A stretch of 64,000 nt of DNA from Vulcanimicrobiota bacterium (lineage in GTDB: Bacteria; Vulcanimicrobiota; Vulcanimicrobiia; Eremiobacterales; Eremiobacteraceae): the NCBI GenBank assembly GCA_013290125.1, contig JABCYQ010000004.1, positions 1 through 64,000 of the forward strand, given 5' to 3'. The notes beneath the pieces are model-generated. The model did not search any database, was not told where the DNA came from, and saw nothing but the letters and a program-made list of their open reading frames with translations. Of the stretch, positions 14,013-59,118 are shown in pieces. The position numbers and the translations under genes are program-made. Within the stretch, counting starts at the first letter, position 1, and each line of letters opens with the position of its first letter.

Positions 14013-15326
14013 ATGAAGAAACGCGAGGCGACCACACTCGGTCAAGACAGTATCCGGACCCTCGTCTTCAGTCTGGGCCAGTCGGTGTTCGCCGCGCTCA
14101 CAGGCATCGCGGTGGCAAAAGCGATCGGACCCGCCGGCAAAGGCGAGTATGCGCTGCTGCAGTTGTTCCAAGCGGCGGCGAGCGGCGTGACGGGCAACCT
14201 CGGTCTGTCGATAACGTATGAACTCACGCGCCAGCGCAAGCCGTTCGCGGAGCTCGTTAAACCTCTCACCGTGTTGCTCGCGATACTTTCGCTCATCGAG
14301 TGGGCCATAGTCGGCGTCTGGATATGGATCAAAGGACCGGAACCTGCGCCCTTGCTTTTCGCGGCATCGGCGCCGGCGTTGATCGTGCTCTCGTGGCAGT
14401 CGCCGATCTTCCTCGGATTGGGCTGGATCCGGTCGTTAAACGTGCAAGGGCTTGCGTTTGCGATCGGCACGTTCGCCGCCGCGGTGATCACGCTCTATGT
14501 CTTTCACCTCGGAACGATCGGCGCGATGTGGGGTTGGGTTGCCAGCGTCTGGGCGATCGCGATCTCCACACTTGTCCGCACGGCGCCGGTCGCGCACGGC
14601 GAACAGACAGACAGGACGATGACGATCGTCGGCAGGCTGATGCACTTCGGGATCCGGGCCGGCGCCGGCGGCATCTTCGGATTCATCAATAGCCGCATCG
14701 CGTCGGTGATCGTCGTCTCGATGGCGGGCACGGCGGCCCTAGGGATTTTCTCCGTCGCGGTTTCGGCCGGTGAGGTCTTGCTCAAGATCTCACGCTCGGT
14801 CGCGCAGGCGGCGACGAAGCGGGTCGGGTCGTCTCAGCGCGACGTCGCGGCTGCTACCGTTGCCAAGTCGAACCGCGCGAGCACAGCGTTGATCGTCTCG
14901 TCGGGAACGGCTGCCTTTATTTTGGCGCCATGGCTTGTCGACACGCTCTACGGCACAAAATTCCACGAGGCGAGCATCGCGCTGCGCATTCTCTTGCCGG
15001 GCATCGCGGCGCTCTCGTGCGCCGGAATTCTCTCGACGTTCTTCAACTATCAGATGGGAAGACCGATATTCTTGGTCTTCACATCCGTGATGAACGCGGT
15101 CATCGTGACGGTACTGTGCTTCATCTTGGTGCCGCGCTTCGGAATGGTGGGCGCCGCCTGGAGCTGCACGATCACGTATCTCAATGCCGCAGTGGTCACC
15201 ACCTGGTATTTCTGCAAACATTCCGGCATGTCGGCGTTTGAAGTTTGGATCCCCAAGGTCGACGATGTCAAGACTATCTTGACCGCGCTGCGCAAACCCG
15301 GCCTGGTCACCCCGTCGTCAGATTGA
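14013..15326 (+). CDS. Polysaccharide flippase, MATE/MOP superfamily (copy B)
   Basis: 437 residues, the same length as copy A at 9531 and alignable to it without gaps. Long stretches are identical, for example AKAIGPAGKGEYALLQLFQA and LSTFFNYQMGRP. Differences are spread evenly, with more in the cytoplasmic loop after TAP and in the C-terminal tail. Function as for copy A: translocation of lipid-linked oligosaccharide. Two diverged copies in one locus may handle two different repeat units, or one may be a relic of a segmental duplication that also produced the related glycosyltransferases. The 3' end overlaps gmhA on the other strand by 20 bp. Confidence 0.88.
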   Translation: MKKREATTLGQDSIRTLVFSLGQSVFAALTGIAVAKAIGPAGKGEYALLQLFQAAASGVTGNLGLSITYELTRQRKPFAELVKPLTVLLAILSLIEWAIVGVWIWIKGPEPAPLLFAASAPALIVLSWQSPIFLGLGWIRSLNVQGLAFAIGTFAAAVITLYVFHLGTIGAMWGWVASVWAIAISTLVRTAPVAHGEQTDRTMTIVGRLMHFGIRAGAGGIFGFINSRIASVIVVSMAGTAALGIFSVAVSAGEVLLKISRSVAQAATKRVGSSQRDVAAATVAKSNRASTALIVSSGTAAFILAPWLVDTLYGTKFHEASIALRILLPGIAALSCAGILSTFFNYQMGRPIFLVFTSVMNAVIVTVLCFILVPRFGMVGAAWSCTITYLNAAVVTTWYFCKHSGMSAFEVWIPKVDDVKTILTALRKPGLVTPSSD

Positions 15327-15870
15327 GTTCGCACAGCTCGCAGAGAATGTGACCGAGCGCGAAGTGCACTTCCTGCACTTTCCATGACGGACCTGATGGC
15401 CCGACGATCGCGATATCGGCAAGTTCCGCCACCGGGCCGCCGCCGTTTCCGGTGAACGCGATGCGCACGACGCCAAGCTCTTGGGCCGCTCGCAGCGCTT
15501 CGATAACATTTTTCGACGAACCGGATGTGGTGAACCCGATCGCGACATCGCCGCGGCGCGCGATCGCGCGCAACTGACGCTCGAAGACGCGGTCGTAGCC
15601 GTAGTCGTTCGCTATCGCGGTCAACGCGCTCGTGTCGGTCGTCAGCGCGATGCCTGCCCATGCCGGCCGCTCGAGAAGAAATCGGCCGGAGAACTCGGCC
15701 GCGATGTGCTGCGCCTGCGCCGCGCTGCCGCCGTTGCCGAAGAGCAGGACGCGCCCACCGCCGCGGATCGTCTTCACGACGGCAGCGACCGCGCGATCGA
15801 TCGCCGGACCGTAATCTGCGCCGGCGAAAAGATCTCGCCGTTCCGCGAGACAGTCGGAGAACGTCTTCAT
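15307..15870 (-). CDS. gmhA: Sedoheptulose-7-phosphate isomerase, SIS domain
   Basis: 187 residues from the ATG at 15870. The frame is open further upstream, but that part is translated repeat DNA. SIS motifs are LLFGNGGSAAQAQHIAAEFS, then LTTDTSALTAIANDYGYDRVF, IGFTTSGSSKNVIEAL, and the metal-site region VQEVHFALGHILCELCE near the end. These are typical of GmhA, which converts sedoheptulose 7-phosphate to D-glycero-D-manno-heptose 7-phosphate. The same substrate feeds the cyclase encoded at 19241-21241, so the gene probably belongs to the C7 part of this locus. No hldE-type or hddA-type GHMP kinase is visible. Confidence 0.9.
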   Translation of the reverse strand: MKTFSDCLAERRDLFAGADYGPAIDRAVAAVVKTIRGGGRVLLFGNGGSAAQAQHIAAEFSGRFLLERPAWAGIALTTDTSALTAIANDYGYDRVFERQLRAIARRGDVAIGFTTSGSSKNVIEALRAAQELGVVRIAFTGNGGGPVAELADIAIVGPSGPSWKVQEVHFALGHILCELCELNLTTG

Positions 15871-15926
15871 CGCGCCGCATTTTGTGTCCGATGTGGGGCG
15901 GACCTTTACGATCCGCTTCGGATGCC

Positions 15927-15958
15927 TGAAGGGGCCGACGCTAGTCGGCCCGCTTTTT
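15927..15958 (+). repeat. REP-like palindrome with T-tract, possible terminator
   Basis: TGAAGGGGCCGACG with loop CTA-type sequence and GTCGGCCC, followed by GCTTTTTT. The perfect 8-bp stem and T-run make it look like a factor-independent terminator on the + strand, although it lies between two gene starts. The preceding bases (GGGCGGACCTTTAC, 15896-15909) recur beside the repeat at 26981. Confidence 0.75.
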
Positions 15959-16079
15959 TCGGGGCTCATCCGGCGACGTCGATAGCCGGGGCGTCTGAGG
16001 CGGCGAAAGCCGCCGAAGTCGAGCGGCGGAGGACGATGACGTAGGACCAGTCAGCGACCTTAGGGTATGGTCGGGCCTG

Positions 16080-16997
16080 ATGCAACATACTATCGCCGTG
16101 ACCGGCGCGGGCGGATTCATCGGTTCGCGCGTCGTCGCTGCTTTGGCGGCGCGTGGCGCGCGGGTAAAAGCGCATCTCGGTCCGCCCGGATACGATGCAC
16201 GACCGCTGCCTCCGCAGGTCGTGACAGCGTTCGCGGACGTCAACGACGCCGGAGCGATGCGCTCGATCATCGCGGGCAGCGACGCGGTGATCCATCTCGC
16301 CGGTCCGCCATCGGTTCGCGCATCGTTCGCTGCGGCAGCTGATTACGCGGCGCAGCATGTCGGTGGAACCGCGGTCTGCCTTCAGGCCTGCGTCGATGAA
16401 AAAGTGCGACGCTTCGTCCTCATCTCATCGGCCGATGTCTACGGGCGGCCGCAAACCGATCGAGTCGCAGAGGATCATCCGCTCAGCGCGCGTTCGCCAT
16501 ATGCGGCGGCGAAGATCGGCGCAGAACAGATGGCCGGCGCGTTCGCCCAAGCGCACGGAATCGAAGTGGCGATATTGCGTCCGTTTTCTATTTACGGTCC
16601 GGGTGTTTCCCGATATTCGCTGCTTTGGACGATTCTGGAGCAAGCACGCTTGCGCGCCGAGATCACGCTCGCCGACCTGAAGCCCGTTCGCGATTATTGT
16701 TACGTCGACGACCTGGCAGATGCGGCGGTGCGCGCCGCTCTTGCCCCGATCGAATCGCCGCTGATCCTGAACATCGGCTCCGGCGTCGGTACGAGCGTGG
16801 TTGACCTCGCGAAGTTGACGCTTCGCGTCATGGGGCGGACGGGTGACGTGCTCGAGCACGCAAACGACAAGCGCGTGGGTGAATCCGAGATCTACCGGCT
16901 CGTGGCGGATCCGAGCAGGGCGCAAAGCCTGCTCAACTGGCATACGGAAACCGATCTTGCGGCCGGTCTGCGCAAGACGATCGACGCGCTTCTTTAA
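16080..16997 (+). CDS. NAD-dependent epimerase/dehydratase (extended SDR)
   Basis: 305 residues. It has the cofactor motif GAGGFIG (9-15), the NAD-side motif HLAGPPSVRAS, active-site SSADVYG (about 116-122) and YAAAK (141-145), and RPFSIYGPG. It belongs to the NDP-sugar epimerase/4,6-dehydratase group. It probably modifies a nucleotide-activated sugar or cyclitol; the exact reaction cannot be read from sequence. It converges on the GH4-type gene with a 4-bp overlap. Its start is 210 bp from that of gmhA on the other strand, so a divergent promoter region lies between them. Confidence 0.87.
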   Translation: MQHTIAVTGAGGFIGSRVVAALAARGARVKAHLGPPGYDARPLPPQVVTAFADVNDAGAMRSIIAGSDAVIHLAGPPSVRASFAAAADYAAQHVGGTAVCLQACVDEKVRRFVLISSADVYGRPQTDRVAEDHPLSARSPYAAAKIGAEQMAGAFAQAHGIEVAILRPFSIYGPGVSRYSLLWTILEQARLRAEITLADLKPVRDYCYVDDLADAAVRAALAPIESPLILNIGSGVGTSVVDLAKLTLRVMGRTGDVLEHANDKRVGESEIYRLVADPSRAQSLLNWHTETDLAAGLRKTIDALL

Positions 16998-18229
16998 CGG
17001 CCGATCTCCGCCGCCAGCTGCGTCGCGACTGAGCCGTCGCGAACCCACGGGTGGCCTTTGATCGCGGCGGCCAAAGCCTTTGTGTCGCGATTTCTCACGG
17101 CATTCGACGCCGCACGCTCGAACTCGACGAATGCATCGAGCGGCGCGCGCAGCCTGTCCGGAATAGCACCGATCGCGTCGAGCGGTTTCAAATCACCGTT
17201 TGAAAACCGGTGGGGAATCTCGAGCACGTCTTGTGCGTCAAACGCAGAGGTGTAGCTGCCATTTCTAACGGTGAGAAAAGACGCTGTGGGCGAGGCACGT
17301 CCGCCGAAACCGCCTATCAGCGGTGCGATCGCATGCTCGTACCACGGGGTCGATCGAGCGCGCAGATGCGCCACAATCGCGGGGCGGTCCCTGGTCCGAT
17401 ACGCGGCGTACGCCCGTTCCTGCAGCTCCAATAGCTCCCGGCCGCGCGATCGCGGCGACTTGCGTTGCTCTTCCAATACGGAATCTGCTTCGTAGTGCAA
17501 TCGAAGATACTTGAGCGGGATAGCTCCCAAGCGCTCGATCAACGCGCCCGATGGAAACTCGATAGCATTCTGGCGCGCAGCTGCATATTCGGCGACGACA
17601 TCGCGCCCCGACGCGAACACGCTCCAAAACCATCCGAGGTGATTTACGCCGGCGTACGCAAACGTCGCGCCCCGCACATCCGCGCCTACAGCGACGCAGG
17701 CATCCGTAAGCGTGGTCCACGGCAATTCGCAAACGCCGGCTAACCACAGGTCGCCGAATTCGTCGAGCGCGCAACGTGTGAGTATTCCGACCGGCGACGT
17801 CATGAGGATGATGCGAGCCAACGGCGCGTGACGCCGGATCGATATGAGGGTCTCGCGCAGCACGGGCCACGCGCGCCACGCGGCCGCAAGCCCACCTACG
17901 CCAAGGCCTTCGTCACCGCACAGGCCGAACTTCAACGGGAACGTCTCGTCCGATTCCCGCGCTTCGTAGCCGCCATAACGGGCTTGGCAGAGCACGACGT
18001 CCGCGCCACGCAGCGCCGACATATCGCCGCCAGGAGCGATCGCGACCGAGGCAACGCGAAATGTCGTCGGCGCGGTGATCAACTCGATCGCGCGCGCCAC
18101 CGCGTCGAGCCGCTCCGTCGAGCGTCCGAGCAGAACGACCTCAAGCGTCTCCGCCAACTCTCTAAGCGGATCGCACGCGAAAAGATTGGGTGTGCTGTGA
18201 GCACTGCCGCCGACGATGACGAGCTTCAT
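16994..18229 (-). CDS. GH4-type NAD-dependent glycosidase/dehydrogenase
   Basis: 411 residues from the ATG at 18229 (MKLVIVGGSAHSTP). Family 4 features are the N-terminal Rossmann strand, LLGRSTERLDA, LCGDEGLGVGGLAAAWR (102-119) and LMTSPVGILT (142-151). The metal ligands sit at Cys167 in VCELP and His197 in NHLGW. Family 4 enzymes use NAD+ and a divalent metal to oxidise C3 and then eliminate the aglycone. In this operon it could instead act as an oxidoreductase or lyase on a C7 intermediate; that is inference. Its start overlaps the ROK gene stop by ATGA. Confidence 0.82.
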   Translation of the reverse strand: MKLVIVGGSAHSTPNLFACDPLRELAETLEVVLLGRSTERLDAVARAIELITAPTTFRVASVAIAPGGDMSALRGADVVLCQARYGGYEARESDETFPLKFGLCGDEGLGVGGLAAAWRAWPVLRETLISIRRHAPLARIILMTSPVGILTRCALDEFGDLWLAGVCELPWTTLTDACVAVGADVRGATFAYAGVNHLGWFWSVFASGRDVVAEYAAARQNAIEFPSGALIERLGAIPLKYLRLHYEADSVLEEQRKSPRSRGRELLELQERAYAAYRTRDRPAIVAHLRARSTPWYEHAIAPLIGGFGGRASPTASFLTVRNGSYTSAFDAQDVLEIPHRFSNGDLKPLDAIGAIPDRLRAPLDAFVEFERAASNAVRNRDTKALAAAIKGHPWVRDGSVATQLAAEIGR

Positions 18230-19236
18230 CGACGCTTGCGCGCGAACGACGCGGCGAACAGACCGGCGCCTCGCAGACACGCATCCTCCGGCGATCGCCC
18301 GAAGTCGATGACGTCGTCGATCCGCACGTCGATCAATCCCGGGCTCATCCGGCGCTGGACCGACATCCGCAGAGAATCGATGTACCGATGACCGAGGCTA
18401 ACGGCAAAACCGCCTATCACGAGCACCCGCTGTAGTGATGCGGCTATAATCGCGGCTGAGAGCGTCTGTGCAAGCGGCTCTTGCCCCTTGGCGATGACGC
18501 TCCACGCCCAAACATCGCCCGCCTGCGCTGCGGGAACCAGATGCTGCTCGTTCGTCACACTGTCGGCTGTGGCGCCGAACGACGTGGCGCAGCTCGATCG
18601 AAGAAACGAAGCCGAGTCGAACAGCGCCATGCGTCGGGCCAGGTTCTCTGTACCACGACCAGACGCGATCGCTCCAAGGTGACCGCGCCCGCCGCAGTCG
18701 CAAAGCGGTGCATCACTTGCGTCATCGACTGTGATGTGGCCGATTTCGCCCGCGAACGGCCACGCGTCCAAAACCCGGTCAGGATTCGCGCGATCGACGA
18801 GTTTGCTGCCGATGCCGCTGCTCACCGTGACGACTAGAAAACGATCGGCGCGCTCGGTGGTCAAGAAAAACCAGCCGGCAGCGGACACGTCGTTGAGCAG
18901 ATAAACGCGACGGCCCGTGCGTTTGCCTACGATGCTTACGGCGTCCGGCATCTCAACCGATTGTCCGACTACGGTCGGCGCGCGAACGATTCGCGAATGA
19001 TTCCCGATCGGCCCCGGGAACGCGAGCGCGATCGGATCGTCCGCAGCAAGACCACTATGAGCAGCGCCGGCGAACTCCTCGATCAGCCTGAAGATATGGT
19101 TCCACACTTGTTGCGGGTCGCGGTCCGCGGGCCCCAGGTCGATCCGATGCGTGACGACGTCGGTCACGTCTCCCGAATCGGAACAGACGGCACACCGCAA
19201 GAACGTTCCGCCGAGGTCTACAGCCACGGACGGCAC
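18226..19236 (-). CDS. ROK-family sugar/cyclitol kinase
   Basis: 336 residues, GTG start at 19236, only 4 bp after the cyclase stop. It has the phosphate-binding VAVDLGGTFLR (4-14), the catalytic Asp in LLNDVSAAGW, and GEIGHI with the metal His. The ROK zinc segment CDCGGRGHLGAIASG has His where the third Cys of CXCGXXGC is normal. Known C7-cyclitol kinases (AcbM and ValC in acarbose and validamycin biosynthesis) belong to the same broad kinase group. It may therefore phosphorylate the cyclase product. A repressor role is unlikely because there is no N-terminal HTH domain. Confidence 0.85.
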   Translation of the reverse strand: MPSVAVDLGGTFLRCAVCSDSGDVTDVVTHRIDLGPADRDPQQVWNHIFRLIEEFAGAAHSGLAADDPIALAFPGPIGNHSRIVRAPTVVGQSVEMPDAVSIVGKRTGRRVYLLNDVSAAGWFFLTTERADRFLVVTVSSGIGSKLVDRANPDRVLDAWPFAGEIGHITVDDASDAPLCDCGGRGHLGAIASGRGTENLARRMALFDSASFLRSSCATSFGATADSVTNEQHLVPAAQAGDVWAWSVIAKGQEPLAQTLSAAIIAASLQRVLVIGGFAVSLGHRYIDSLRMSVQRRMSPGLIDVRIDDVIDFGRSPEDACLRGAGLFAASFARKRR

Positions 19237-19240
19237 GCGT

Positions 19241-21241
19241 TTACGCGTCCGCTAGTGCAGGTTCTACGCCCGCGACAAAGCGCGCCGCAGCATCGATTTC
19301 GCTGGGCTCGACGTCTTGCAGAAAGGCGCCGGCGCCGACTTCGGTGGGCACGACCAAATTGAGGTTGCCGCCGCGGTGAAGCCGCGTTTCGTCAAGGCTG
19401 GTCGCAAGCACGTCGCTCGAACATAGCGCGTGGATGACCGGCAGCTGCGCGGCATGGTAGAGGCGTATCATCCGCTGCACAACGGAGATGTGGCATACGT
19501 GCCGTTGCACCGCGAGCGCCGTGGCGAGCGCCATATCGAGGGCCACAGCCTCGCCGTGGGCCAGTTCGTGACGGCTGCTGAGTTCGAGCGTCGGACTGAA
19601 CGTATGCCCGAAGTCGACCCAACGCCGCAGATCGTGTTCGTAGAGATTCGGTTGCAATTGCTGCAGCATCGAGAGCTGTGCGCGCAATATGCTTTCATCG
19701 GCCGCCAACGCCGGCTTCTGGAAGTGAGAATCGACAAATTGGTTTATATTCGCTTCGAGAATCTCAAATAGACGGCGGTCGCAGACGAGCGCGATCTTGA
19801 TCATCTCCGCCACGCCGCACGCGATGTGCCGGCGAGGAAGGGTTTTGAGGAACAGCGGGTCGTTGACGCATCCGAACGGCGGGTAGAAAGAGCCCAATAG
19901 ATTCTTCTTTGACGCGAAATTCACGCCTTGCTTGATACCGACGCCGGCGTCGATCAGACCCACGAGCGTCGTCGGCACTCGGACGTAGCGGATTCCGCGA
20001 CGGAATATCGATGCGGCCATGCCGGTGACGTCCAGCGTGATGCCGCCGCCCAGCGCCATCATGATTCCCTCTCGACCGAGCCCGCAGCGCAGCGCCTCCG
20101 CGCAGATGCGCTCGACGAGCGGCCACGACTTCTCCGCTTCGGTTGCGTCGATGATCAACTCACCGACGAGATCGATGTGGCGCTCCGCGTACGACTTCAG
20201 CGCGCGGCCATACTGTTCGTTGACGGCGCGGTCCACGACGATGAAGGTCTGCCTGCCATCAAGCTGTGACGCAAGCGTCGGGTCGTCCAGGTCGAAGATA
20301 TGCCGCGAGACATGCCTCACGTCGTACGCGATGTTGCGCTCCGTGACGAGCGAGAACGCCGGCCGATCGATCGTGCCGGCAAACCACACGCCAGGCGACC
20401 GGCCGACCGCGCTCACACATCTCAACGCACCGCTATACCGGTCGGCGCGCGTGCTGAGGATGAACGGCACGCGTCGATCGCCGCTGAGCCTAGACGCTTC
20501 ATTCGCGAAGGCCACCGCCACAGACGGCGATGAGAAGAGCGTGCTCACGCAGACGACTGCGTCGTACCCGAACGACTGCAGCACGCCGAGCATCGGTTCG
20601 AGGTCGTGCAATAGGTGAGCGAAGACGTTCTCGGCGCGCATGGGGTTCGCCGTATCGTGCGCGGACGCGGCCGATACCGCGACCGCTGCCGACGCACCCG
20701 GCGCGGGCGCGCTGATGAGGTCCGCCAACAGATCCGTATGCACGACTTGCCGATGCGGCCTACGCGACAAGAGACTGCGCAGATCGCCGTCGCACTCGAT
20801 GAGATCGTCGATGACCGCGCCGGCCCCGCGCTTGAGCAGACTCGCCGATCCCCCGCCCCGAAAATCAAGAATGACAAATCGTGCGTGCTGCGGCGGCACA
20901 GAACTTGCGATCGCGCTCGACGGATGCACGACCCAGACAGGGAGGGGATAGCCGGCCACGAGTCTCGGCTCGAAGCCTTTTGACGAGCCGGTATCCTCCG
21001 CGAGAAAAATCACCGAGTCCACCGGACCGAGATCCGCTGCAAGCGACTCCGCGATCGAGCAGAGATCGTCGACTGTGGCCTCGCGCCCTGGCCCACCATC
21101 CAAGGTGAAACATTCGATCTGCGCGGCATCGCGGGCTTCGACGATCGTCGCCGTCCAGACGCCGAGCGACTGCCGCTCGATGATGAGCGTGCGTCCGCAG
21201 CTGGCCGGAGGCGCGTGAGCCCGGTGTTTCACGGCCGTCAA
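19241..21241 (-). CDS. Sedoheptulose-7-phosphate-cyclase-like protein with extra N-terminal domain
   Basis: 666 residues, TTG start overlapping the cupin stop. Residues about 300-666 are a dehydroquinate-synthase-fold domain. It has ALGGGITLDVTG (397-407), VPTTLVGLIDAGVGIKQ (422-438), NFASKKNLLGSFYPP, and metal ligands Glu479 (GVAEMIK), His546 (FGHTFSP) and His562 (AHGEAVALDM). VGLIDAGVGIK and DFGHTFSP, in place of the dehydroquinate synthase GHTFGHAIE, point to the sedoheptulose 7-phosphate cyclases (2-epi-5-epi-valiolone synthase and relatives). Residues 17-290 are an extra domain with LDFRGGGSASLLKRGAG and CVSTLFSSPSVAVAF. I do not recognise it firmly; it could be ASKHA-like. The exact cyclitol product cannot be told. 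Confidence 0.82.
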   Translation of the reverse strand: MTAVKHRAHAPPASCGRTLIIERQSLGVWTATIVEARDAAQIECFTLDGGPGREATVDDLCSIAESLAADLGPVDSVIFLAEDTGSSKGFEPRLVAGYPLPVWVVHPSSAIASSVPPQHARFVILDFRGGGSASLLKRGAGAVIDDLIECDGDLRSLLSRRPHRQVVHTDLLADLISAPAPGASAAVAVSAASAHDTANPMRAENVFAHLLHDLEPMLGVLQSFGYDAVVCVSTLFSSPSVAVAFANEASRLSGDRRVPFILSTRADRYSGALRCVSAVGRSPGVWFAGTIDRPAFSLVTERNIAYDVRHVSRHIFDLDDPTLASQLDGRQTFIVVDRAVNEQYGRALKSYAERHIDLVGELIIDATEAEKSWPLVERICAEALRCGLGREGIMMALGGGITLDVTGMAASIFRRGIRYVRVPTTLVGLIDAGVGIKQGVNFASKKNLLGSFYPPFGCVNDPLFLKTLPRRHIACGVAEMIKIALVCDRRLFEILEANINQFVDSHFQKPALAADESILRAQLSMLQQLQPNLYEHDLRRWVDFGHTFSPTLELSSRHELAHGEAVALDMALATALAVQRHVCHISVVQRMIRLYHAAQLPVIHALCSSDVLATSLDETRLHRGGNLNLVVPTEVGAGAFLQDVEPSEIDAAARFVAGVEPALADA

Positions 21242-21591
21242 GTCCGCACTTGCACGACGAAGATCTCAACGTCATCGCGCGTGTCGTTCACGAGCTCGTG
21301 CCATCCGCCGGAGCGCACTAGGGTGACGTCGGCGCGCCGAAGGCGACGCTCGATACCGTCGACGCGCATGAGCGGCGTGCCGCTGACGATGAAATATAGC
21401 TCTTCGTTGCCGGTGTGGTCGTGCCGGCCGATCGTGCTATTCGGCGGGATGACCGTGAGATCGAGAAAATCTATCTTTGACTCGAATTGCTCCGAGGCCA
21501 TGAGCCGGCGAAAGACGATCGGACCGACGCCGCCGTGTTCAGCCGAGCGATGGATCGCAGCGACTTCCTCCGGCGAGACGAACTTCTTCAT
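21238..21591 (-). CDS. Cupin-domain protein
   Basis: 117 residues. GAGGTG about 9 bp before the ATG is a good ribosome-binding site. It is a single cupin barrel: GRHDHTGNEELYFIVSG supplies the HXH...E metal ligands of motif 1, and VRSGGWHELVND is motif 2 with the remaining His. It overlaps the cyclase start by 4 bp, so it is the first gene of a four-gene operon (cupin, cyclase, ROK kinase, GH4-type enzyme). It may be an epimerase or isomerase acting on the cyclitol, or a small-molecule sensor. The family alone does not decide this. Confidence 0.83.
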   Translation of the reverse strand: MKKFVSPEEVAAIHRSAEHGGVGPIVFRRLMASEQFESKIDFLDLTVIPPNSTIGRHDHTGNEELYFIVSGTPLMRVDGIERRLRRADVTLVRSGGWHELVNDTRDDVEIFVVQVRT

Positions 21592-21797
21592 GCCGCGGCA
21601 CCTCGGCGCGCGTTGAAGTCAGATGCGAAAAATCGCGGCCGAGACAATCGCTTCCGACTCACGCGCCGCTTGACGGATTAGGCCGACCTCGGATTGGAAC
21701 CTCGCGCTTGGATGGTGCAAAAGACCTAACCGCGCGCGACCCGCACAGGCGCGTGTTCTCGGGTCCCCGTAGTTCTGGTCATGGTCGACGTGAAGCG
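21592..21797. promoter_or_regulatory. Divergent intergenic region between the two C7 operons
   Basis: About 206 bp separate the cupin gene (-) from the nucleotidyltransferase gene (+). Both operons must be transcribed from here, which suggests shared control. I see no convincing -35/-10 pair or palindrome, so this entry rests on gene arrangement only. Confidence 0.4.
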
Positions 21798-22907
21798 GTG
21801 AGCACGATCGGACCGCGCGTGACGGCGGTCATCAACGCCGGCGGCCGATCTCAACGCATGGCGGCGAGCGGCATCGCGCTTCACAAAGCGCTCGTGCCCG
21901 TGCTCGGCGTACCGCTCGTGGAACGAAACCTCGTCGTGCTCCTCGAGCAAGGCTTCAAGGACATTGTCATCGTGGTCAGCGCCAAGTCACCCGACGTCGA
22001 AGCGTTCGCGCGCGGGCGTGCATCGGGTCTTGCCTCGGCGCGCGGCGCTTCCGTCGAGTGCGTCCGAGAGATCGAATCGCTCGGGAACATGGGGATCGCC
22101 GGCAGACTTGGATCACGCGCGCAGGATCTGGTCGTGACGTTTGTCGACAACCTCACGACGCTCGATCTGACGCGCGTGATCGATCGACATCGCGAAAGTG
22201 ATGCCGCGCTCACGGTCGCATCGCACGTTGAATCGTTCACCGTTCCGCACGGCGAATTGACGATCTCCGATGCTTTCGTCATCGACTACATCGAAAAGCC
22301 CGCGAAGCCGGTTCAAGTCGCAAGCGGTATCTACGTCCTTAAACCGCGCGCAGCCGCTTGCATCCCTTCGGACAGGCCCACGGGGGCGGTTGACTTGTTT
22401 CGACTGCTCAAGGAGCGTGGTGAAAGCGTCGCGGCGTTCGTCCACGACGCTCCATGGATCGACATCAACGACAGCGCTGCCGTGCGGCGCGCGGAAACGC
22501 TGGTCGCCGCCAATCCCGACGCGTTCGAACTCTTCGAATCGCAGCCGGACGTCACCGACGACTGCCTTCTCGTCAGGGCGAAAGACGAGATTCTCGTTCG
22601 CGAGAATGTGGGGGGCGATTTTCGCGGGCGGTTCGACGTCGTGCGCGGGCGCGACGCAGCATCACTGTCCGACGGCGCGGCGCGCTTCACGGCGGGCGCA
22701 AAGACCCACCTCGCCACGTTCGACGACTTCGCCGATGTCAGCAAAAGGTTTATAAGGCACACCGTGTCGCTGGTGGAAGCCGGCGGCGTCAAGACGCAAG
22801 AAGCCGCCGAGGTCTTTGCGTGGATCGCGGCCGACGCAGCTCACGATCCAGCGGATCTGACACAGCCGCTTCGCCGCTGTCTTGCGATAGCGCAGCGACA
22901 TACGTGA
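21798..22907 (+). CDS. Nucleotidyltransferase (NDP-sugar pyrophosphorylase-like)
   Basis: About 369 residues from the GTG at 21798; a second GTG at 21819 directly before TAVINAGG is equally possible. The signature is VINAGGRSQRM, followed by HKALVPVLGVPLVERNL. This corresponds to the GGXGXRL...K-P pattern of RmlA/GlmU/GCD1-type transferases. VVTFVDNLTTLDL carries the metal-binding Asp and IEKP the product-site Lys. The last 140 residues (from about FELFESQPDV) are an extra helical region without the usual left-handed beta-helix. It probably activates a sugar or cyclitol phosphate to an NDP form. It overlaps the next glycosyltransferase by GTGA. Confidence 0.83.
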   Translation: MSTIGPRVTAVINAGGRSQRMAASGIALHKALVPVLGVPLVERNLVVLLEQGFKDIVIVVSAKSPDVEAFARGRASGLASARGASVECVREIESLGNMGIAGRLGSRAQDLVVTFVDNLTTLDLTRVIDRHRESDAALTVASHVESFTVPHGELTISDAFVIDYIEKPAKPVQVASGIYVLKPRAAACIPSDRPTGAVDLFRLLKERGESVAAFVHDAPWIDINDSAAVRRAETLVAANPDAFELFESQPDVTDDCLLVRAKDEILVRENVGGDFRGRFDVVRGRDAASLSDGAARFTAGAKTHLATFDDFADVSKRFIRHTVSLVEAGGVKTQEAAEVFAWIAADAAHDPADLTQPLRRCLAIAQRHT

Positions 22908-24103
22908 GCGGTAAGATCAAAGTCGTGTCGCTCATGAACGAGCTGCTGTTCGGCGGCGATGAGAATCGCCTGCTTTCGATGTCGCGCGCTATCGACAAGA
23001 CACGCTTCGACCACCGCGTAATGACGATCAAGCGGCCCGACGCGGAATTCGATGCGCGTTTCGGAACGATGCGCGGACACTATGCGGCTGCCGGCATCGA
23101 AGTCGATGACTTGGGTGAAGGCTACCCGAATGCGCACGTTCGACCCGGCGATCCGGTGCTTGTGCTCAATCGGGCGACGATGCTTGCCCGAACGATGAAT
23201 CACTTCTCGCGTTATGTGCGCCGCCACCGTATCGATGTCATCGATGCGCACCTCGGGCCCGGAAATCTCGTCGGCGTAGCCACGGGCAAGATGACGCGGA
23301 CACCGGTCGCCGTCACGACCTACCACGCCGAACCGTGGGAGCCGCGTTGGCTGTGGCGGCGCGTGCACGCATCCGTGTTGCGCAACGCAACGGTCGTCAT
23401 CACCGATTCGGAAGCGTGCGCGGACACACTGCGCTCGTTCATGGACCGGCCGAGTGCCGCGATATCGGTCATCACGAACGGCCTCGATCCGCCGTCAAGC
23501 AGTCGTTCGCGCGCAGAGATGCGGCGATCGCTCGGGTTGCCTGATGGTCCGGCCGTGCGTGTGATCGGTCAAGTGGCAACGCTTTTGCCGACGAAGGGTC
23601 AGATGGTACTCCTGGACGCGGCGAAAATCATACTGAACGAGACATCGGATGTGGCTTTTCTCATCGTGGGTTTTCCGCGCGATCCGGCCTACAGAGATGC
23701 GCTCGTTCGCCGCGCCGAAGAACTCGGCATCCAGGAGCGCGTGCGGATCGTGTGCTATCCCGGACCGATCGGAGACGTTTGGAAGGCGATCGACATCCAC
23801 ACCCACCCCACACTGCTCGACTCGCTGCCGCAAGCGATCATGGAAGCGATGTCGCTCGGGCTGCCGTCTGTGGTGACGCCTATCGCCGGAATACCGACGA
23901 TGATCGAGGACGACCACACAGGTCTGATCGTACGCCCAAGCGATCCGGGCGATCTCGCGCGTGCGTTGTTGAGACTTCTATCAGACGCGCCTTCTGCGCA
24001 GCGCCTCGGTGCGGCGGCATCGCAGCGCTTCCGCGAACGATACACGACTGAGATCATGACGCGTTCGCTCGAAGATCTTTTCGCGAGAATGGCGGGCGCA
24101 TGA
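22904..24103 (+). CDS. Glycosyltransferase family 4
   Basis: 399 residues from the GTG at 22904, which overlaps the upstream TGA. VVSLMNELLFGGDENRLL opens the N-terminal domain. IDAHLGPGNLVGV and VTTYHAEPWEPRW follow. The donor domain has QVATLLPTKGQMVLLDA and THPTLLDSLPQAIMEAMSLG, where Asp replaces the first acid of EX7E. It sits between the nucleotidyltransferase and an SDR gene with overlaps on both sides. It is therefore the natural candidate to use the NDP-activated C7 unit. That assignment is from context only. Confidence 0.86.
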   Translation: MSGKIKVVSLMNELLFGGDENRLLSMSRAIDKTRFDHRVMTIKRPDAEFDARFGTMRGHYAAAGIEVDDLGEGYPNAHVRPGDPVLVLNRATMLARTMNHFSRYVRRHRIDVIDAHLGPGNLVGVATGKMTRTPVAVTTYHAEPWEPRWLWRRVHASVLRNATVVITDSEACADTLRSFMDRPSAAISVITNGLDPPSSSRSRAEMRRSLGLPDGPAVRVIGQVATLLPTKGQMVLLDAAKIILNETSDVAFLIVGFPRDPAYRDALVRRAEELGIQERVRIVCYPGPIGDVWKAIDIHTHPTLLDSLPQAIMEAMSLGLPSVVTPIAGIPTMIEDDHTGLIVRPSDPGDLARALLRLLSDAPSAQRLGAAASQRFRERYTTEIMTRSLEDLFARMAGA

Positions 24104-25131
24104 CGAGCCGGTATCTCGTGACCGGAGCGCAAGGGTTCGTCGGCCGTTTCCTCGTGGCGCATCTCCTGACGAGCGACGACGGCGCAAACGTACTCGGGAT
24201 CGGTCGTTCGCCGGCAAACGATCTGCATTTCACGCACATAGTGCACTGGGGGAAGCAGACAGTCCCTGCGCCGTTGCCGGCTGCATCGAAGACCGCTCGT
24301 GGCGATCGCTATCGGTACCAGACCGCAGATCTGCAAGATCGCCCCGCGTTGGAGTCGCTCATGCGATCGTTCAAGCCGGACGTGATCATGCATATGGCCT
24401 CAGGTCTTCGCGACGATCCGCTGGAGCATCTCTTCCGGACAAATGTCGAAGGCACGGCGCACCTCATCGAAGCCGTGGCTACATCCGAAATCCCGGTTCG
24501 GCGGATCGTATTCGGCTCGAGCGGAGCGATTTATGGACGCTCGGCTCTCGAACGGCTGCCGCTCGACGAAGAGACACCATGTCAGCCGGTCGATCTTTAT
24601 TCGGCCAGCAAACTCGCTGCTGAGAACGTCTCGCGCATCATGACCGAGCATCATGGCATCCCGGCTGTCTGGGCGCGGATCTTCAATATCGCCGGTCCGG
24701 GTCAAGAGGAACGGCATTTCTGCGGCAAAGTCGCAGCCCAAACCGCGGCGATCAAATTCGGCTTACTGCCGGCCAGGATCGAAGTCGGAGACCTCACGCC
24801 GACGCGCGACTTCATCGACGTACGCGACGTCGCCGTGGCGCTCTCGACGCTTGGGTCTCGCGGGAAACCGGGTCTCGCGTACAACGTTGCGAGCGGCACA
24901 GAGACAGCGATGGGAAAAGTGCTTGACGTTGCGCTTGAGATTTCGGGATTGGCTGGTCAGGTGGCGATCGAAAACACGTATCGGCGGCCCGCAGACATCG
25001 CGCGTGCGTACGCGGGAATAGATCGACTGACCGATCTCGGATTTGCGCCACGTTTCGACCTGCGTCGAAGCATGGCCGATTTGATCGATTACTATTCCAC
25101 GACCGTCCGATCGGAAGCGGAAAGCGCCTGA
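24100..25131 (+). CDS. NAD-dependent epimerase/dehydratase (extended SDR)
   Basis: 343 residues, ATGA overlap with the upstream glycosyltransferase. The cofactor motif is GAQGFVG (9-15). The active site is GSSGAIYG with YSASK at 167-171, and RIFNIAGPG and TPTRDFIDVRDVA follow. The overall pattern is close to GDP-4-keto-6-deoxy-mannose reductase and GDP-mannose 4,6-dehydratase. It probably reduces or epimerises a nucleotide-linked keto-sugar. It is the last gene of the rightward three-gene operon and converges on the glycosyltransferase at 25135. Confidence 0.86.
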   Translation: MTSRYLVTGAQGFVGRFLVAHLLTSDDGANVLGIGRSPANDLHFTHIVHWGKQTVPAPLPAASKTARGDRYRYQTADLQDRPALESLMRSFKPDVIMHMASGLRDDPLEHLFRTNVEGTAHLIEAVATSEIPVRRIVFGSSGAIYGRSALERLPLDEETPCQPVDLYSASKLAAENVSRIMTEHHGIPAVWARIFNIAGPGQEERHFCGKVAAQTAAIKFGLLPARIEVGDLTPTRDFIDVRDVAVALSTLGSRGKPGLAYNVASGTETAMGKVLDVALEISGLAGQVAIENTYRRPADIARAYAGIDRLTDLGFAPRFDLRRSMADLIDYYSTTVRSEAESA

Positions 25132-27063: not shown

Positions 27064-28311
27064 TCAGCTATCACACGCGCTTGCGCGACGTTCGAGAAAG
27101 CGCCGCTCCGTCGGATTGCGCGCGACGGCGGCTGCTGCCTGGAAGCTCTTGCGCGCCGACGCAACATTCCCGCTGCGCAATTCGAGTTCGCCGATCGCAG
27201 CATGGTAGAACGGGTATTCGGCGAGGCGGTCGGCGTCGGCGATCGCGCGGATCTCCGCCAGACCCGGCGCGGGTCCATCTGCTTGCGCTATCGCGATTGC
27301 GCGGTTGAGCGCCACGATCGGCGAAGGCTGCAGCGCGACGAGCTTGTCGTAGAGCGATACGATCTCCATCCAATCCGTCTCTCTTGAACTGGCCGCGCTG
27401 GCGTGCACCGCGGCGATCGCCGCTTCGATGTGATATTCCGAAAGGTCGGATCCGACCGCGGACCGCTCGAGCAACCGCTGCCCTTCCTTTATAAGCGACG
27501 CATCCCAGAGCGTGCGGTCTTGATCGGCGAGCGGTGTCAGGTCTCCGGCCGCGTCGATGCGCGCAGGGAGGCGCGCGGCGTGCAGCCGCATGAGCGCGCA
27601 GAGCGCGTACGTCGCCGGCGTGGCGGCGGGCGCGAAATCAAGAAGCAGCCCCGCCAAGCGCATCGCCTCACGGCAAAGCTCGGTGCGCACGACTGACTCG
27701 CGCGACGCACCATGATAGCCTTCGTTGAAGAGCAGATAGAGCGCGCGTCGAACCGCTGTGAGGCGGACCGAAAAATCGCGATCCGTGAGGTCGAAAAGCC
27801 GCTTCGCTCCTGCGAGAACGTGCTTCGCTCGCGAGATCCGCTTTTCGATCGCCGCTTTGCCGCTCAAGAACGCAGCAGCGATCTCCGCCGTGCCGAATCC
27901 ACAGACGAGATGCAGAACGAGCGCGACCTGCGCCGCTTCCGAAAGACGGGGATCGCAGCACGAGAACATCATCCGCAGGAGATCGTCTTTGATCGCGGTC
28001 GGCTGGAAGTATTCTTCGATCGTGGGGACGAGCGTCCACTCGCTTTCGTGACGCTTGTCGAGCTCGGGAGAGAATTCTCGGACCTTGCGCTCCTTGCGCA
28101 AAACATCGATGGCGCGGTTCTTCGCTGCTTTGAGAAGCCACGCCGCCGGATTGTCCGGAACGCCGCGCAGCTTCCATGTCTCCAAGGCTCGGCAGAAGGC
28201 ATCTTGCACGACGTCTTCCGCCAAGCCGAGGTTGTGCATCCCGAAGATCCGCGTGAGCGTGGCGACCATCCGCCCCGATTCTCGCCGGAAGAGATGCTCG
28301 TCGACGATCAC
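27064..28311 (-). CDS. ECF sigma factor, ECF42 type with C-terminal extension
   Basis: 415 residues from a GTG at 28311 that shares a base with the upstream TAG; GGAG sits 7 bp before it. The sigma2 region has GLAEDVVQDAFCRALETWKL and NPAAWLLKAAKNRAIDVLR. The sigma4 region has LVLHLVCGFGTAEIAAAFL. The long C-terminal TPR-like extension, with LYLLFNEGYHGA, ALNRAIAIAQADGPAPGL and YHAAIGELELRSGN, is typical of ECF42. This group pairs with DGPF/YCII-type proteins, as here. It directs RNA polymerase to a small regulon. No anti-sigma gene is adjacent. Confidence 0.92.
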   Translation of the reverse strand: MIVDEHLFRRESGRMVATLTRIFGMHNLGLAEDVVQDAFCRALETWKLRGVPDNPAAWLLKAAKNRAIDVLRKERKVREFSPELDKRHESEWTLVPTIEEYFQPTAIKDDLLRMMFSCCDPRLSEAAQVALVLHLVCGFGTAEIAAAFLSGKAAIEKRISRAKHVLAGAKRLFDLTDRDFSVRLTAVRRALYLLFNEGYHGASRESVVRTELCREAMRLAGLLLDFAPAATPATYALCALMRLHAARLPARIDAAGDLTPLADQDRTLWDASLIKEGQRLLERSAVGSDLSEYHIEAAIAAVHASAASSRETDWMEIVSLYDKLVALQPSPIVALNRAIAIAQADGPAPGLAEIRAIADADRLAEYPFYHAAIGELELRSGNVASARKSFQAAAAVARNPTERRFLERRASACDS

Positions 28312-28646
28312 TACATCTCCATGACGGGCCGGACTTCGACCATTCCTCCGGTCTCGAAGATCGGGCAGCCCTTGGCTAGCTCCGCCGCGTGCGCAAGATC
28401 CCTCGCTTCGACCAGAGTGTAGCCGCCGACGACGTCTTTGGTTTCGGCGTACGGACCATCGGTGACGACTTTCTGCTTGCCCTTGACGACCTTGCCCTCG
28501 GATTCCAGCGGCTGACCGCGATCCTTCATGTGACCCTTCTGACCAAGTTCGGTCATCCATGCCACCCAGCGCTGCATGACCTTTTCCGACTCTTCCGGCG
28601 TGTTCGCGCGCTCACCGCCGCGATAGATGTATAGGAAGTCGCTCAT
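28311..28646 (-). CDS. YCII-related DGPF-domain protein, partner of ECF42 sigma factor
   Basis: 111 residues. AAGGAGA about 12 bp before the ATG is a good ribosome-binding site. It is a small ferredoxin-like-fold protein with VVTDGPYAETKDVVGGYTLVE, the DGPF-type signature found in genes next to ECF42 sigma factors. Its stop overlaps the sigma factor start by one base, so the two are translationally coupled. Its biochemical activity is not known for the family; it is thought to belong to the regulated response. Confidence 0.9.
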   Translation of the reverse strand: MSDFLYIYRGGERANTPEESEKVMQRWVAWMTELGQKGHMKDRGQPLESEGKVVKGKQKVVTDGPYAETKDVVGGYTLVEARDLAHAAELAKGCPIFETGGMVEVRPVMEM

Positions 28647-56730: not shown

Positions 56731-59115
56731 ATGCTCACTGAACGTAACCAAGACCTGAACGAGCTTTCGCAAGACGAATTGCACCGAATCGATGCATACT
56801 GGCGCGCTGCCAACTATCTTTCCGTCGGCCAGATTTATCTGCTCGACAATCCGCTGCTGAGAGAATCGCTTAAAGCCGAACATGTGAAGCCGCGATTGCT
56901 TGGCCACTGGGGAACGACGCCAGGGCTAAACTTCGTCTACGCGCACTTGAACCGGGCGATCAAGAAGCACGATTTGGATATGATCTTCATCGCCGGCCCT
57001 GGCCACGGCGGCCCAGCTGTTGTCGCGAACACGTACTTAGAGGGAACGTACAGCGAACTGTATCCGAACGTCGGTCAGGATACCAAAGGCATGCAGGCGC
57101 TTTTCAAGCAGTTCTCATTCCCCGGGGGAGTGCCGAGCCATGCTTCGCCGGAGACTCCAGGTTCGATCAACGAAGGCGGTGAGCTTGGCTACGCGCTCAC
57201 GCACGCGTTCGGCGCCGTGTTCGACAATCCGAGCCTCATAGCGGCGACCGTCGTCGGTGATGGAGAAGCTGAGACCGGAGCGCTCGCCGCAAGCTGGCAT
57301 TCGAATAAATTTCTCAATCCGGCGCGCGACGGCGCCGTGCTGCCGATCCTGCATCTCAATGGATATAAAATAGCCGGGCCGACCGTGCTCGCGCGGATTC
57401 CAGACAAAGAACTCACGTCTCTGCTCGAAGGGTACGGCTATGCGCCCCACACGGTGGAAGGCGACGAGCCTGAGGCGATGCACCGCCACATGGCTGAAAC
57501 GCTCGGAAGAGTTCTCGCGGAAATTCGCTCGATTCAAGACCAAGCGCGCGCGAGCGGCTTCACGACTCGCCGGCCCTGGCCCATGATCGTGCTGCGTTCG
57601 CCCAAAGGCTGGACCGGACCCAAGACTGTGGATGGTCTACAAGTTGAGGGAACGTTCCGCGCACACCAGGTCCCCGTGGACGACGTGCGAGCAAATCCAA
57701 GACATTTGCGCATTTTGGAAGATTGGATGCGAAGCTATCGCCCGGCCGAATTGTTCGATGAAAACGGTCGGTTGAGGCCGGAGTTGGCCGGGCTCGCGCC
57801 TGTTGGAAATCGCAGAATGGGTTCCAACCCTCACGCGAACGGCGGATTGTTGCTTCGGGACCTCATCATGCCCGATTTCCGCGACCATGCCGTTGCGGTC
57901 AACGCGCCGGGCGTCGCGCGCGGAGAAGCGACGCGTGTCCTGGGTAAGTTCTTGCGCGAGATCGTGCGCCTAAATCCCGACACGTTTCGCGTGGTCGGCC
58001 CGGACGAGACGAATTCCAATCGGCTCAATGCATTGTTCGACGTCACGAACCGCTGTTCCACGGCGGAGATACTCCCGACAGACGACCACATAGCACCTGA
58101 CGGACGTGTGATGGAAGTGTTGAGCGAGCATCTCTGTCAAGGTTGGCTCGAAGGATATCTCTTGACGGGACGTCACGGGTTCTTCTCATGTTATGAGGCG
58201 TTCAGTCACATCATCGGCTCGATGTTCAACCAACACGCGAAGTGGCTGAAGGTCACGCGCTGCATACCGTGGCGGCGCCCCATCGCGTCGCTCAACTATC
58301 TCCTAACGTCCCACGTTTGGCGCCAGGATAACAACGGTTTCAGTCATCAGGACCCAGGCTTCATCGATCACGTCGTCAACAAGAAAGCAGACGTCGTGCG
58401 AGTCTATCTCCCACCGGACGCCAACACGCTGCTCTCTGTCGCGGATCATTGCTTGCGTAGCCGGCACTACGTCAACGTCATCGTCGCGGGCAAGCAGCCT
58501 GAATGGCAGTGGTTAGATATCGAGGCGGCGATCCGCCATTGCACCGAGGGCATCGGCATTTGGGACTGGGCGAGCAACGATCAGGGCCTCGATCCCGACG
58601 TCGTCATGGCCTGCGCGGGCGACGTGCCGACGCTCGAGACACTCGCGGCCGTCGCGTTGCTCAATCAACACCTGCCGGACGTGAAAATCCGGGTGGTCAA
58701 TGTCGTAGACCTTATGACGCTCCAATCGCGTTCAGAACATCCACACGGATTACCTGACGACGAATTCGATTCGATATTCACAAAAAATGCGCCGATCATC
58801 TTCGCGTTTCACGGTTATCCCGCACTCATCCACAGGCTGACGTATCGACGCGCGAACCATGCTGGGCTTCACGTCCATGGCTACAAGGAAGAAGGCTCGA
58901 CGACGACGCCGTTCGACATGACCGTTAGAAATGAGATCGATCGATACCATTTGGCGAATGACGCGATCAATCGGCTGCCACCGATCCAAGACCGTTCGGC
59001 GCACCTGCAGCAGCTCATCCGAGATAAACTCGTCGAACACGCTGTCTACGTACGCCAATTCGGCGAAGATATGCCGGAGATCCGCGACTGGCGTTGGCGT
59101 TCCGGAAGACTCTGA
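56731..59115 (+). CDS. xfp: Phosphoketolase (xylulose 5-phosphate/fructose 6-phosphate)
   Basis: 794 residues, the normal length. [38 protein letters not shown], and the ThDP motif [20 protein letters not shown] with KFLNP are family hallmarks. [10 protein letters not shown] and [20 protein letters not shown] occur in the second half. It cleaves ketose phosphates with Pi to acetyl phosphate plus a shorter sugar phosphate. It is followed after 3 bp by acetate kinase, which would turn acetyl phosphate into acetate and ATP. Confidence 0.97.
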
Positions 59116-59118
59116 TCC

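What the first reader, a model, noticed from the sequence alone, without database searches (positions are those of the whole stretch)
15307..25131. Candidate C7-cyclitol (sedoheptulose-derived) pathway inside a sulfated-glycan locus
Two tight operons diverge from 21.6-21.8 kb. Leftward: cupin, sedoheptulose-7-phosphate-cyclase-like protein, ROK kinase, GH4-type NAD enzyme. Rightward: nucleotidyltransferase, GT4 glycosyltransferase, SDR. gmhA and a second SDR adjoin. The set cyclase + ROK-type kinase + nucleotidyltransferase + glycosyltransferase parallels validamycin and acarbose biosynthesis (ValA/ValC/ValB/ValL, AcbC/AcbM). Here it lies in a polysaccharide locus, and no aminotransferase is visible. 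Inference: an NDP-activated, nitrogen-free C7-cyclitol is built into a surface glycan. If so, this would be a new use of that chemistry.
Basis: partly seen in the sequence, partly recalled or inferred. Interest (0 to 1): 0.92.

Follow-up and report, generated by a model that had tools for sequence, protein, structure and literature searches.

The report
Ring-shaped sugar-mimic pathway in uncultured bacteria
A group of uncultured bacteria carries a conserved seven- to eight-gene set that looks built to make a ring-shaped mimic of a sugar, the kind of building block known from the drug acarbose, and to join it by a sugar-type linkage to something; in this genome the set sits among genes for a sulfated surface coat, but that the ring ends up in the coat is unproven.

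Summary
The 666-aa cyclase belongs to the sedoheptulose-7-phosphate (S7P) cyclases, not to dehydroquinate synthases: its nearest solved structure is ValA, the S7P-cyclase clade has 100/99 support, grouping it with AroB is rejected (AU p 0.0014), it matches ValA at three sites that separate EEVS from DDGS, EboD and AroB here, and the genome has a separate aroB. Cyclase, ROK kinase, nucleotidyltransferase, GT4, two SDRs and a GH4-like NAD enzyme form a cassette conserved in 6 of 149 genomes of the phylum (five genera); where profiled, the genes co-occur exactly. gmhA is not part of it. A dedicated C7-cyclitol pathway is likely. Incorporation into a surface glycan is not shown: the cassette lies beside polymer genes in three genomes but stands alone in two. 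'Nitrogen-free' fits the window, but the closest relative carries an aminotransferase plus Gfo/Idh dehydrogenase beside both copies. New here: the cyclase carries an N-terminal ~280-aa domain with a predicted sugar-kinase fold that lacks kinase motifs. Verdict: a new variant of known C7-cyclitol logic; product unknown.

The parts
19241..20344 (-). S7P cyclase (EEVS-type) domain, about residues 300-666 of the 666-aa protein
   Evidence: PF01761 and PF24621; best PDB 4p53 ValA E 2.4e-75, then 5tpr; S7P-cyclase clade 100/99, AroB grouping rejected p 0.0014; L/D/H pattern as ValA
20345..21241 (-). N-terminal domain of the cyclase protein (about residues 1-299): predicted ROK/sugar-kinase (ASKHA) fold without kinase motifs
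   Evidence: No Pfam hit; AF2 model pLDDT 66, pTM 0.68; Foldseek best 2yhy ManNAc kinase E 3.1e-8, TM 0.49; no sequence-profile match to ROK; repeat from a relative failed
18226..19236 (-). ROK-family kinase, putative cyclitol kinase
   Evidence: PF00480; DLGGT, ND, GEIGH intact and CDCGGxxH shared with ROKs beside S7P cyclases of Streptomyces clavuligerus and Rhizobium rhizogenes; orthologs only in the 6 cassette genomes
16994..18280 (-). GH4-like NAD/Mn enzyme, putative cyclitol oxidoreductase/epimerase
   Evidence: PF02056 and PF11975; Cys and His metal ligands kept, Asn of the TNP motif replaced by Ser/Ala in all cassette members covering it; close relatives only in the 6 cassette genomes
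21238..21591 (-). Small cupin, accessory (possible epimerase/isomerase)
   Evidence: PF07883; beside the cyclase in 5 loci
21708..22907 (+). Sugar-1-phosphate-type nucleotidyltransferase (true start probably downstream; C-terminal extension of about 135 aa in the window copy)
   Evidence: PF00483/PF12804; AGGRSxRM...HK motif conserved in all cassette copies
22898..24103 (+). GT4 retaining glycosyltransferase
   Evidence: PF00534/PF13439; nearest PDB 3c4q/3c48 (MshA); orthologs only in the 6 cassette genomes
24100..25131 (+). SDR2, extended SDR (epimerase/reductase type)
   Evidence: PF01370/PF16363; YxxxK kept, GSSGAIYG in place of a dehydratase TDE motif
16080..16997 (+). SDR1, extended SDR, conserved in cassettes, convergent with the GH4-like gene
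   Evidence: PF01370; orthologs in G042, G122, G108 and the second G011 copy
15307..15969 (-). GmhA-like SIS isomerase; adjoining, not core
   Evidence: gmhA models matched below cut-off; present only here and in one G011 locus

Best explanation
A dedicated C7-cyclitol (carbasugar) cassette of Eremiobacterota. Shown by sequence: an S7P-type cyclase with the EEVS residue pattern, linked in six genomes to a ROK kinase, a nucleotidyltransferase, a GT4, two extended SDRs and a GH4-like NAD enzyme. Inferred steps: the cyclase turns S7P into 2-epi-5-epi-valiolone or a stereoisomer; the ROK kinase phosphorylates the exocyclic (C7) hydroxyl, as AcbM and ValC do; the GH4-like enzyme, SDR1 and the cupin adjust the ketone and stereochemistry; a housekeeping phosphoglucomutase moves the phosphate to C1, for which PMC12041759 is a precedent and of which this genome has three PGM-family genes; the nucleotidyltransferase makes NDP-cyclitol; SDR2 may modify it; and the GT4 transfers it. 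In this genome the acceptor is probably an intermediate of the sulfated glycan, but that last step is the weakest. The N-terminal kinase-fold domain of the cyclase is probably a non-catalytic scaffold or sensor.
For: Cyclase: ValA nearest; tree, AU test; residues; separate aroB. Cassette: gene order; same 6 of 149 genomes. ROK with intact motifs and CDCGGxxH shared with other cyclase-linked ROKs. SDRs lack the dehydratase triad. PGM route: (PMC12041759). Acarbose/validamycin logic: (PMC9200736). Glycan setting in three genomes.
Against: Only one kinase, and no dedicated C1 kinase or phosphatase. The cassette cyclases form a sister clade of known EEVS/DDGS, with a unique IKQ motif where relatives read KT, KV or KN, so the product may differ from EEV. 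The nucleotidyltransferase has no close characterised relative. GT4 is not the GT20-type pseudoglycosyltransferase of validamycin and is nearest to MshA, whose cyclitol is the acceptor. Two cassettes stand apart from recognised glycan genes. No biochemistry or metabolite data exist.
Confidence: 0.55

Rival explanations
1. The cyclitol is the acceptor, not the donor. The nucleotidyltransferase and SDRs make an NDP-sugar, and the GT4 puts that sugar on the C7-cyclitol phosphate, giving a small pseudo-disaccharide (mycothiol-like or streptol-glucoside-like), which serves as a solute, protectant or signal and not as a polymer unit.
For: Only one kinase; GT4 nearest in the PDB to MshA, which uses inositol-1-phosphate as acceptor; cassettes in G122 and G108 have no recognised glycan-assembly genes within about 20 kb; the single GT in the cassette would be enough; SDRs look like NDP-sugar epimerases.
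Against: Three other loci lie beside polymer assembly genes; no exporter is conserved in the cassette; MshA similarity is about 76 bits, typical of many GT4 enzymes.
Confidence: 0.25
2. An aminocyclitol pathway of the C7N kind, with the amination genes elsewhere or lost in the window genome.
For: The closest relative (cyclase 67% identical) has DegT, Gfo/Idh and Nudix genes beside both of its copies; that DegT matches the DegT of the S. clavuligerus S7P-cyclase cluster at 323 bits; the window begins at a contig end.
Against: No ortholog in the window genome (95% complete; best DegT hits 31-32%) and none among the genes shared by the other cassettes.
Confidence: 0.1
3. Ordinary heptose or nucleotide-sugar biosynthesis: the cyclase is a stray DHQS paralog and the rest makes an NDP-heptose or NDP-hexose for the glycan.
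For: gmhA lies next door; nucleotidyltransferase, SDRs and GTs are usual in glycan loci.
Against: The cyclase is excluded from AroB by tree, AU test and residues; gmhA is not conserved with the cassette; the kinase is ROK, not the GHMP type of the HddA heptose pathway; cyclase, ROK, GH4 and GT4 track each other.
Confidence: 0.07

Closest known systems
[quoted passage not shown]
   Same: S7P-cyclase clade, same L/D/H pattern at the sites separating EEVS from DDGS, EboD and AroB, same metal-ligand motifs
   Different: Sister clade of the known EEVS/DDGS set, unique IKQ motif, extra N-terminal kinase-fold domain in the window copy
Validamycin and acarbose pathways (ValA-ValC-ValB-ValL; AcbC-AcbM-AcbR-AcbS)
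   Same: Cyclase, ROK-type kinase, nucleotidyltransferase and glycosyltransferase in one gene set
   Different: No aminotransferase, VOC epimerase, second kinase or GT20-type pseudoglycosyltransferase in the core; GH4-like enzyme, GT4 and two extended SDRs instead; different phylum; sometimes in glycan loci
ebo cluster (EboD cyclase, UbiA-type EboC)
   Same: Uncharacterised sugar phosphate cyclase in a conserved operon spread over bacteria (PMC5133447)
   Different: EboD is a separate clade with I/D/H residues, and no ROK, NTP or GT genes were annotated beside it in the loci read
S. clavuligerus and Rhizobium rhizogenes plasmid loci with S7P cyclase plus ROK kinase
   Same: Cyclase and ROK adjacent; ROK shares CDCGGxxH
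   Different: No orthologs of the cassette's GH4, NTP, GT4 or SDRs in the stretches read
MshA, mycothiol GT4
   Same: Nearest solved GT4; acts on a cyclitol phosphate
   Different: Low similarity; there the cyclitol is made by inositol phosphate synthase, not by an S7P cyclase (general knowledge)

Membership tests
Sedoheptulose-7-phosphate cyclases (EEVS/DDGS clade) | Phylogenetic placement with ValA/DDGS apart from AroB and EboD | tested here: met
   Clade 100/99; cassette+AroB rejected, p-AU 0.0014
Sedoheptulose-7-phosphate cyclases (EEVS/DDGS clade) | Turns over S7P | not testable with these tools
   Needs an enzyme assay
EEVS proper | Residues at ValA 267/281/360 as L/D/H (DDGS E/A/T, AroB V/N/V or V/N/R). 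Numbering recalled from knowledge of the literature; pattern verified by alignment here | tested here: met
   only 3 of the 14 published fingerprint sites were checked
EEVS proper | Nested among characterised EEVS sequences | tested here: inconclusive
   Cassette clade (99/98) is sister to ValA, S. clavuligerus, R. rhizogenes, second-phylum and DDGS sequences, not inside them
3-Dehydroquinate synthase (AroB) | Groups with AroB and carries its residue pattern (V/N and KK) | tested here: not met
   separate aroB in the genome
Validamycin/acarbose-type C7N pathway | ROK-family C7 kinase next to the EEVS | tested here: met
   the phosphorylated position was not tested
Validamycin/acarbose-type C7N pathway | Cyclitol-1-phosphate nucleotidyltransferase (VldB/AcbR type) | tested here: inconclusive
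   NTP_transferase with conserved motif; best models only weakly similar; VldB/AcbR sequences not compared
Validamycin/acarbose-type C7N pathway | GT20-type (trehalose-phosphate-synthase-like) pseudoglycosyltransferase | tested here: not met
   The GT is GT4
Validamycin/acarbose-type C7N pathway | Aminotransferase | tested here: not met
   None in the window's cassette; best genome-wide DegT hits 31-32%; present in G011
ROK kinases (N-terminal domain of the cyclase protein) | ROK fold | tested here: inconclusive
   Foldseek E 3.1e-8 but TM about 0.5 on a pLDDT-66 model; repeat model failed; no profile-profile match
ROK kinases (N-terminal domain of the cyclase protein) | DxGGT, catalytic Asp, ExGH and CxCG motifs | tested here: not met
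   Sequence: none of them present
GH4 | NAD-binding fold plus Cys/His metal ligands | tested here: met
   PF02056/PF11975; Cys and His conserved
GH4 | TNP-motif Asn of classical GH4 glycosidases | tested here: not met
   Ser or Ala in all cassette members that cover it

The most novel reading that the evidence does not exclude
Eremiobacterota make an NDP-activated, nitrogen-free C7 carbasugar and a retaining GT4 builds it into a sulfated surface polysaccharide, using a cyclase fused to a kinase-fold pseudoenzyme and a GH4-derived cyclitol oxidoreductase: a carbasugar as a structural glycan residue.
Probability: 0.2. Interest if true: 0.88.

Novelty: new variant of a known kind. Interest (0 to 1): 0.66.

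Why it matters
C7-cyclitol chemistry is known mainly from antibiotics, enzyme inhibitors and sunscreens. A conserved cassette in an uncultured phylum, with a GH4-derived redox enzyme, a GT4 and a fused kinase-fold domain, would widen that chemistry and offer new enzymes for carbasugar synthesis. If the product is part of a surface glycan, it would be a sugar mimic likely to resist glycosidases in a bacterial coat, a use for which I found no report in the paper library searched. Every step can be tested with recombinant enzymes in E. coli.

Tried and rejected
Rejected: cyclase as a DHQS paralog. Rejected: gmhA as part of the set; it is linked in only two loci. Rejected as general: strict dependence on polysaccharide loci; L049 and L050 with +-20 kb gave no hit to the glycan genes of the window and L047, though that test used only those genes as baits. 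Tried: a wider taxonomic search; genome contigs with strict patterns gave only the G011 contigs, one foreign contig (L024 = L025) and AroB-like hits; 11 of 350 genomes of a second phylum (reached through a Dehalococcoidia MAG) hold EEVS-like cyclases, but none has cassette neighbours. Tried: a repeat fold of the N-terminal domain from L024; pLDDT 39, unusable. Tried: hhalign of the N-terminal domain against the ROK set; no match. Two key papers (10.1021/acschembio.7b00066 and 10.1021/bi5003508) are not held, so the 14-site fingerprint was not checked in full. A row annotated as DOI synthase and an S. halstedii row were long branches in the first tree and were dropped from the second. EVS and aminoDHQS references were not available.
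Full report
What is there. The window is the start of a 138-kb contig of a 2.9-Mb draft genome. A relative in the same family, G011, is a named 'Candidatus Eremiobacteria' MAG (its 12,129-base contig matches JANWLL010000046.1). The nine genes of the finding are present as described. The leftward genes cupin, cyclase, ROK kinase and GH4-like are tightly packed, with the cupin stop and cyclase start overlapping as TTGA. The rightward genes are an NTP transferase, a GT4 and an extended SDR. A second SDR converges on the GH4-like gene, and a GmhA-like isomerase lies beyond it. To the left lie three sulfotransferase-family proteins, an initiating sugar transferase, a flippase-like protein and several glycosyltransferases, so the glycan setting is real here.

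The cyclase is an S7P cyclase. Its best solved relative is ValA (4p53, E 2.4e-75), followed by the cyanobacterial protein of PDB 5tpr (DDGS by literature knowledge; the PDB entry calls it 3-dehydroquinate synthase); true DHQS chains score far lower. The genome has another, separate DHQ_synthase gene on contig 32, which groups with AroB in the tree. In a tree of 33 cyclases the eight cassette proteins form a clade (99/98). That clade sits with ValA, the S. clavuligerus and R. rhizogenes S7P cyclases, DDGS and a clade from a second phylum in a group with 100/99 support; AroB and EboD lie outside, and a grouping of cassette plus AroB is rejected (p-AU 0.0014). At the three positions that separate the known types in this alignment, the window protein reads L/D/H like ValA, while DDGS reads E/A/T, EboD I/D/H and AroB V/N/V or V/N/R. 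I recalled the site numbers from knowledge of the ValA structure work; the pattern itself is computed here. The cassette clade is sister to the known EEVS/DDGS set and has its own IKQ motif near the active site, so 2-epi-5-epi-valiolone is the most likely product but not the only one possible.

It is a conserved cassette. The cyclase, ROK, NTP transferase, GT4, SDR2 and GH4-like genes lie together in the window and in G011, G042, G051, G122 and G108; SDR1 is seen in most, and the cupin in some. G011 has two copies; the second appears split over two contig ends that both break inside the GH4-like gene. A foreign contig, binned as Syntrophaceae (L024) and again as Ignavibacteriales (L025), has cupin, a two-domain cyclase and ROK. 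Over the same 149 genomes of the phylum, close relatives of the cyclase (apart from G115, whose cyclase falls elsewhere in the tree), ROK, GH4-like protein and GT4 each occur in the same six. The two congeners of the window genome lack the set, so its spread is patchy. Because the genes are physically linked and the genomes related, this co-occurrence is not six independent events. EEVS-like cyclases in 11 of 350 genomes of a second phylum, reached through a Dehalococcoidia MAG, lack all cassette neighbours.

Individual enzymes. The ROK kinase has intact motifs; in place of the usual CxCGxxGC it reads CDCGGxxH, as do the ROKs beside S7P cyclases in S. clavuligerus and R. rhizogenes. The GH4-like protein keeps the Cys and His metal ligands, but the TNP asparagine is Ser or Ala in every cassette member that covers it, which suggests a new substrate; a role as cyclitol oxidoreductase or epimerase is inference. 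Both SDRs keep YxxxK and lack the 4,6-dehydratase triad (and the sequences). The GT4 is nearest to MshA. The window's NTP transferase has a C-terminal extension absent from most relatives.

A fused kinase-fold domain. The first ~280 residues of the cyclase protein match no Pfam family. The predicted structure (pLDDT 66, pTM 0.68) matches sugar kinases of the ROK/ASKHA fold (best 2yhy, E 3.1e-8, TM 0.49). It lacks the ROK phosphate-binding and catalytic motifs, and no profile match to ROK sequences was found. A second prediction from the distant L024 sequence failed. I read it as a degenerate kinase-fold domain, a scaffold or sensor, with moderate confidence. Similar N-termini are seen in G011 (one shortened), L024 and G051 but not in G042, G122 or G108.

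How it most likely works. Known logic: EEVS makes 2-epi-5-epi-valiolone; a ROK kinase adds a C7 phosphate; redox and epimerisation follow; a nucleotidyltransferase makes GDP-valienol; a pseudoglycosyltransferase couples it (PMC9200736). The window lacks a second kinase, but a housekeeping phosphoglucomutase, combined with ValB, turned valienol-7-phosphate into GDP-valienol, by way (as the authors propose) of valienol-1-phosphate (PMC12041759), and this genome has three PGM-family genes. So a route S7P to cyclitol to cyclitol-7-phosphate to cyclitol-1-phosphate to NDP-cyclitol to GT4 product needs no extra gene. The alternative, in which the cyclitol phosphate is the acceptor for an ordinary NDP-sugar, is not excluded.

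Surface glycan or not. The cassette is next to polymer genes in the window, G042 and G051 (Wzy-type ligase, Amj-type flippase, UDP-glucose dehydrogenase, C5-epimerase, initiating transferase). In G122 and G108 no homolog of those genes lies within about 20 kb; this test used only the window and L047 glycan genes as baits.

Nitrogen. No aminotransferase lies in the window's cassette, and the best DegT hits in the genome are 31-32% identical and elsewhere. In G011 both copies carry a DegT aminotransferase, a Gfo/Idh oxidoreductase and a Nudix protein, and that DegT matches the DegT of the S. clavuligerus S7P-cyclase cluster strongly. 'Nitrogen-free' may therefore be right for the window and wrong for its nearest relative.

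Literature. Searches of the held library gave no paper joining C7-cyclitol biosynthesis with a bacterial surface polysaccharide; most subscription papers are not held, so this is weak evidence of absence. Nitrogen-free C7 cyclitols exist elsewhere: streptol glucoside (PMC8599487), gadusol (PMC4426668) and oxygen-bridged validamycin analogues (PMC12041759).

Verdict. The chemistry (a dedicated C7-cyclitol cassette) is well supported by sequence, at about 0.8 in my estimate; activation of the cyclitol itself is about even; incorporation into a surface glycan is about 0.2 to 0.3. It is a new variant of a known kind.

Noticed in passing
window 56731-60306: A phosphoketolase (XFP) followed by acetate kinase, a sugar-phosphate cleaving route; no link to the finding tested.
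   Followed up: no
window 27064-28560; L077 3750-5270: An ORF near the window cassette that reads like an ECF-type sigma factor (not scanned against Pfam) has a strong homolog (E 3e-204) about 1.8 kb from the second G011 cassette, suggesting a shared chromosomal position.
   Followed up: partly
L024 and L025: Practically the same contig (12,179 and 12,182 bases) is binned into a Syntrophaceae MAG and an Ignavibacteriales MAG; at least one bin is contaminated, so the host of this cyclase is unknown.
   Followed up: no
L088-L098: A clade of EEVS-pattern cyclases in a second phylum, without ROK neighbours; one sits in a 1010-aa ORF (L089 9008-12040).
   Followed up: partly
L047 2358-3446 and 10868-11980; L048 10830-11828 and 16570-17610: A family of proteins of unknown function occurs twice in each of the two glycan-linked cassettes of G042 and G051; no Pfam match.
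   Followed up: partly
L051 (G115): An EEVS-pattern cyclase beside UbiA and a xylose-isomerase-like protein, ebo-like by neighbours but not in the EboD clade.
   Followed up: partly
L052 8942-15030: Streptomyces clavuligerus plasmid cluster with ROK, S7P cyclase, DegT, alcohol dehydrogenase and ribulose-phosphate epimerase, apparently a C7N cluster.
   Followed up: no
window 21708-22907: The nucleotidyltransferase has a C-terminal extension of about 135 aa that most cassette relatives lack; nature unknown.
   Followed up: no
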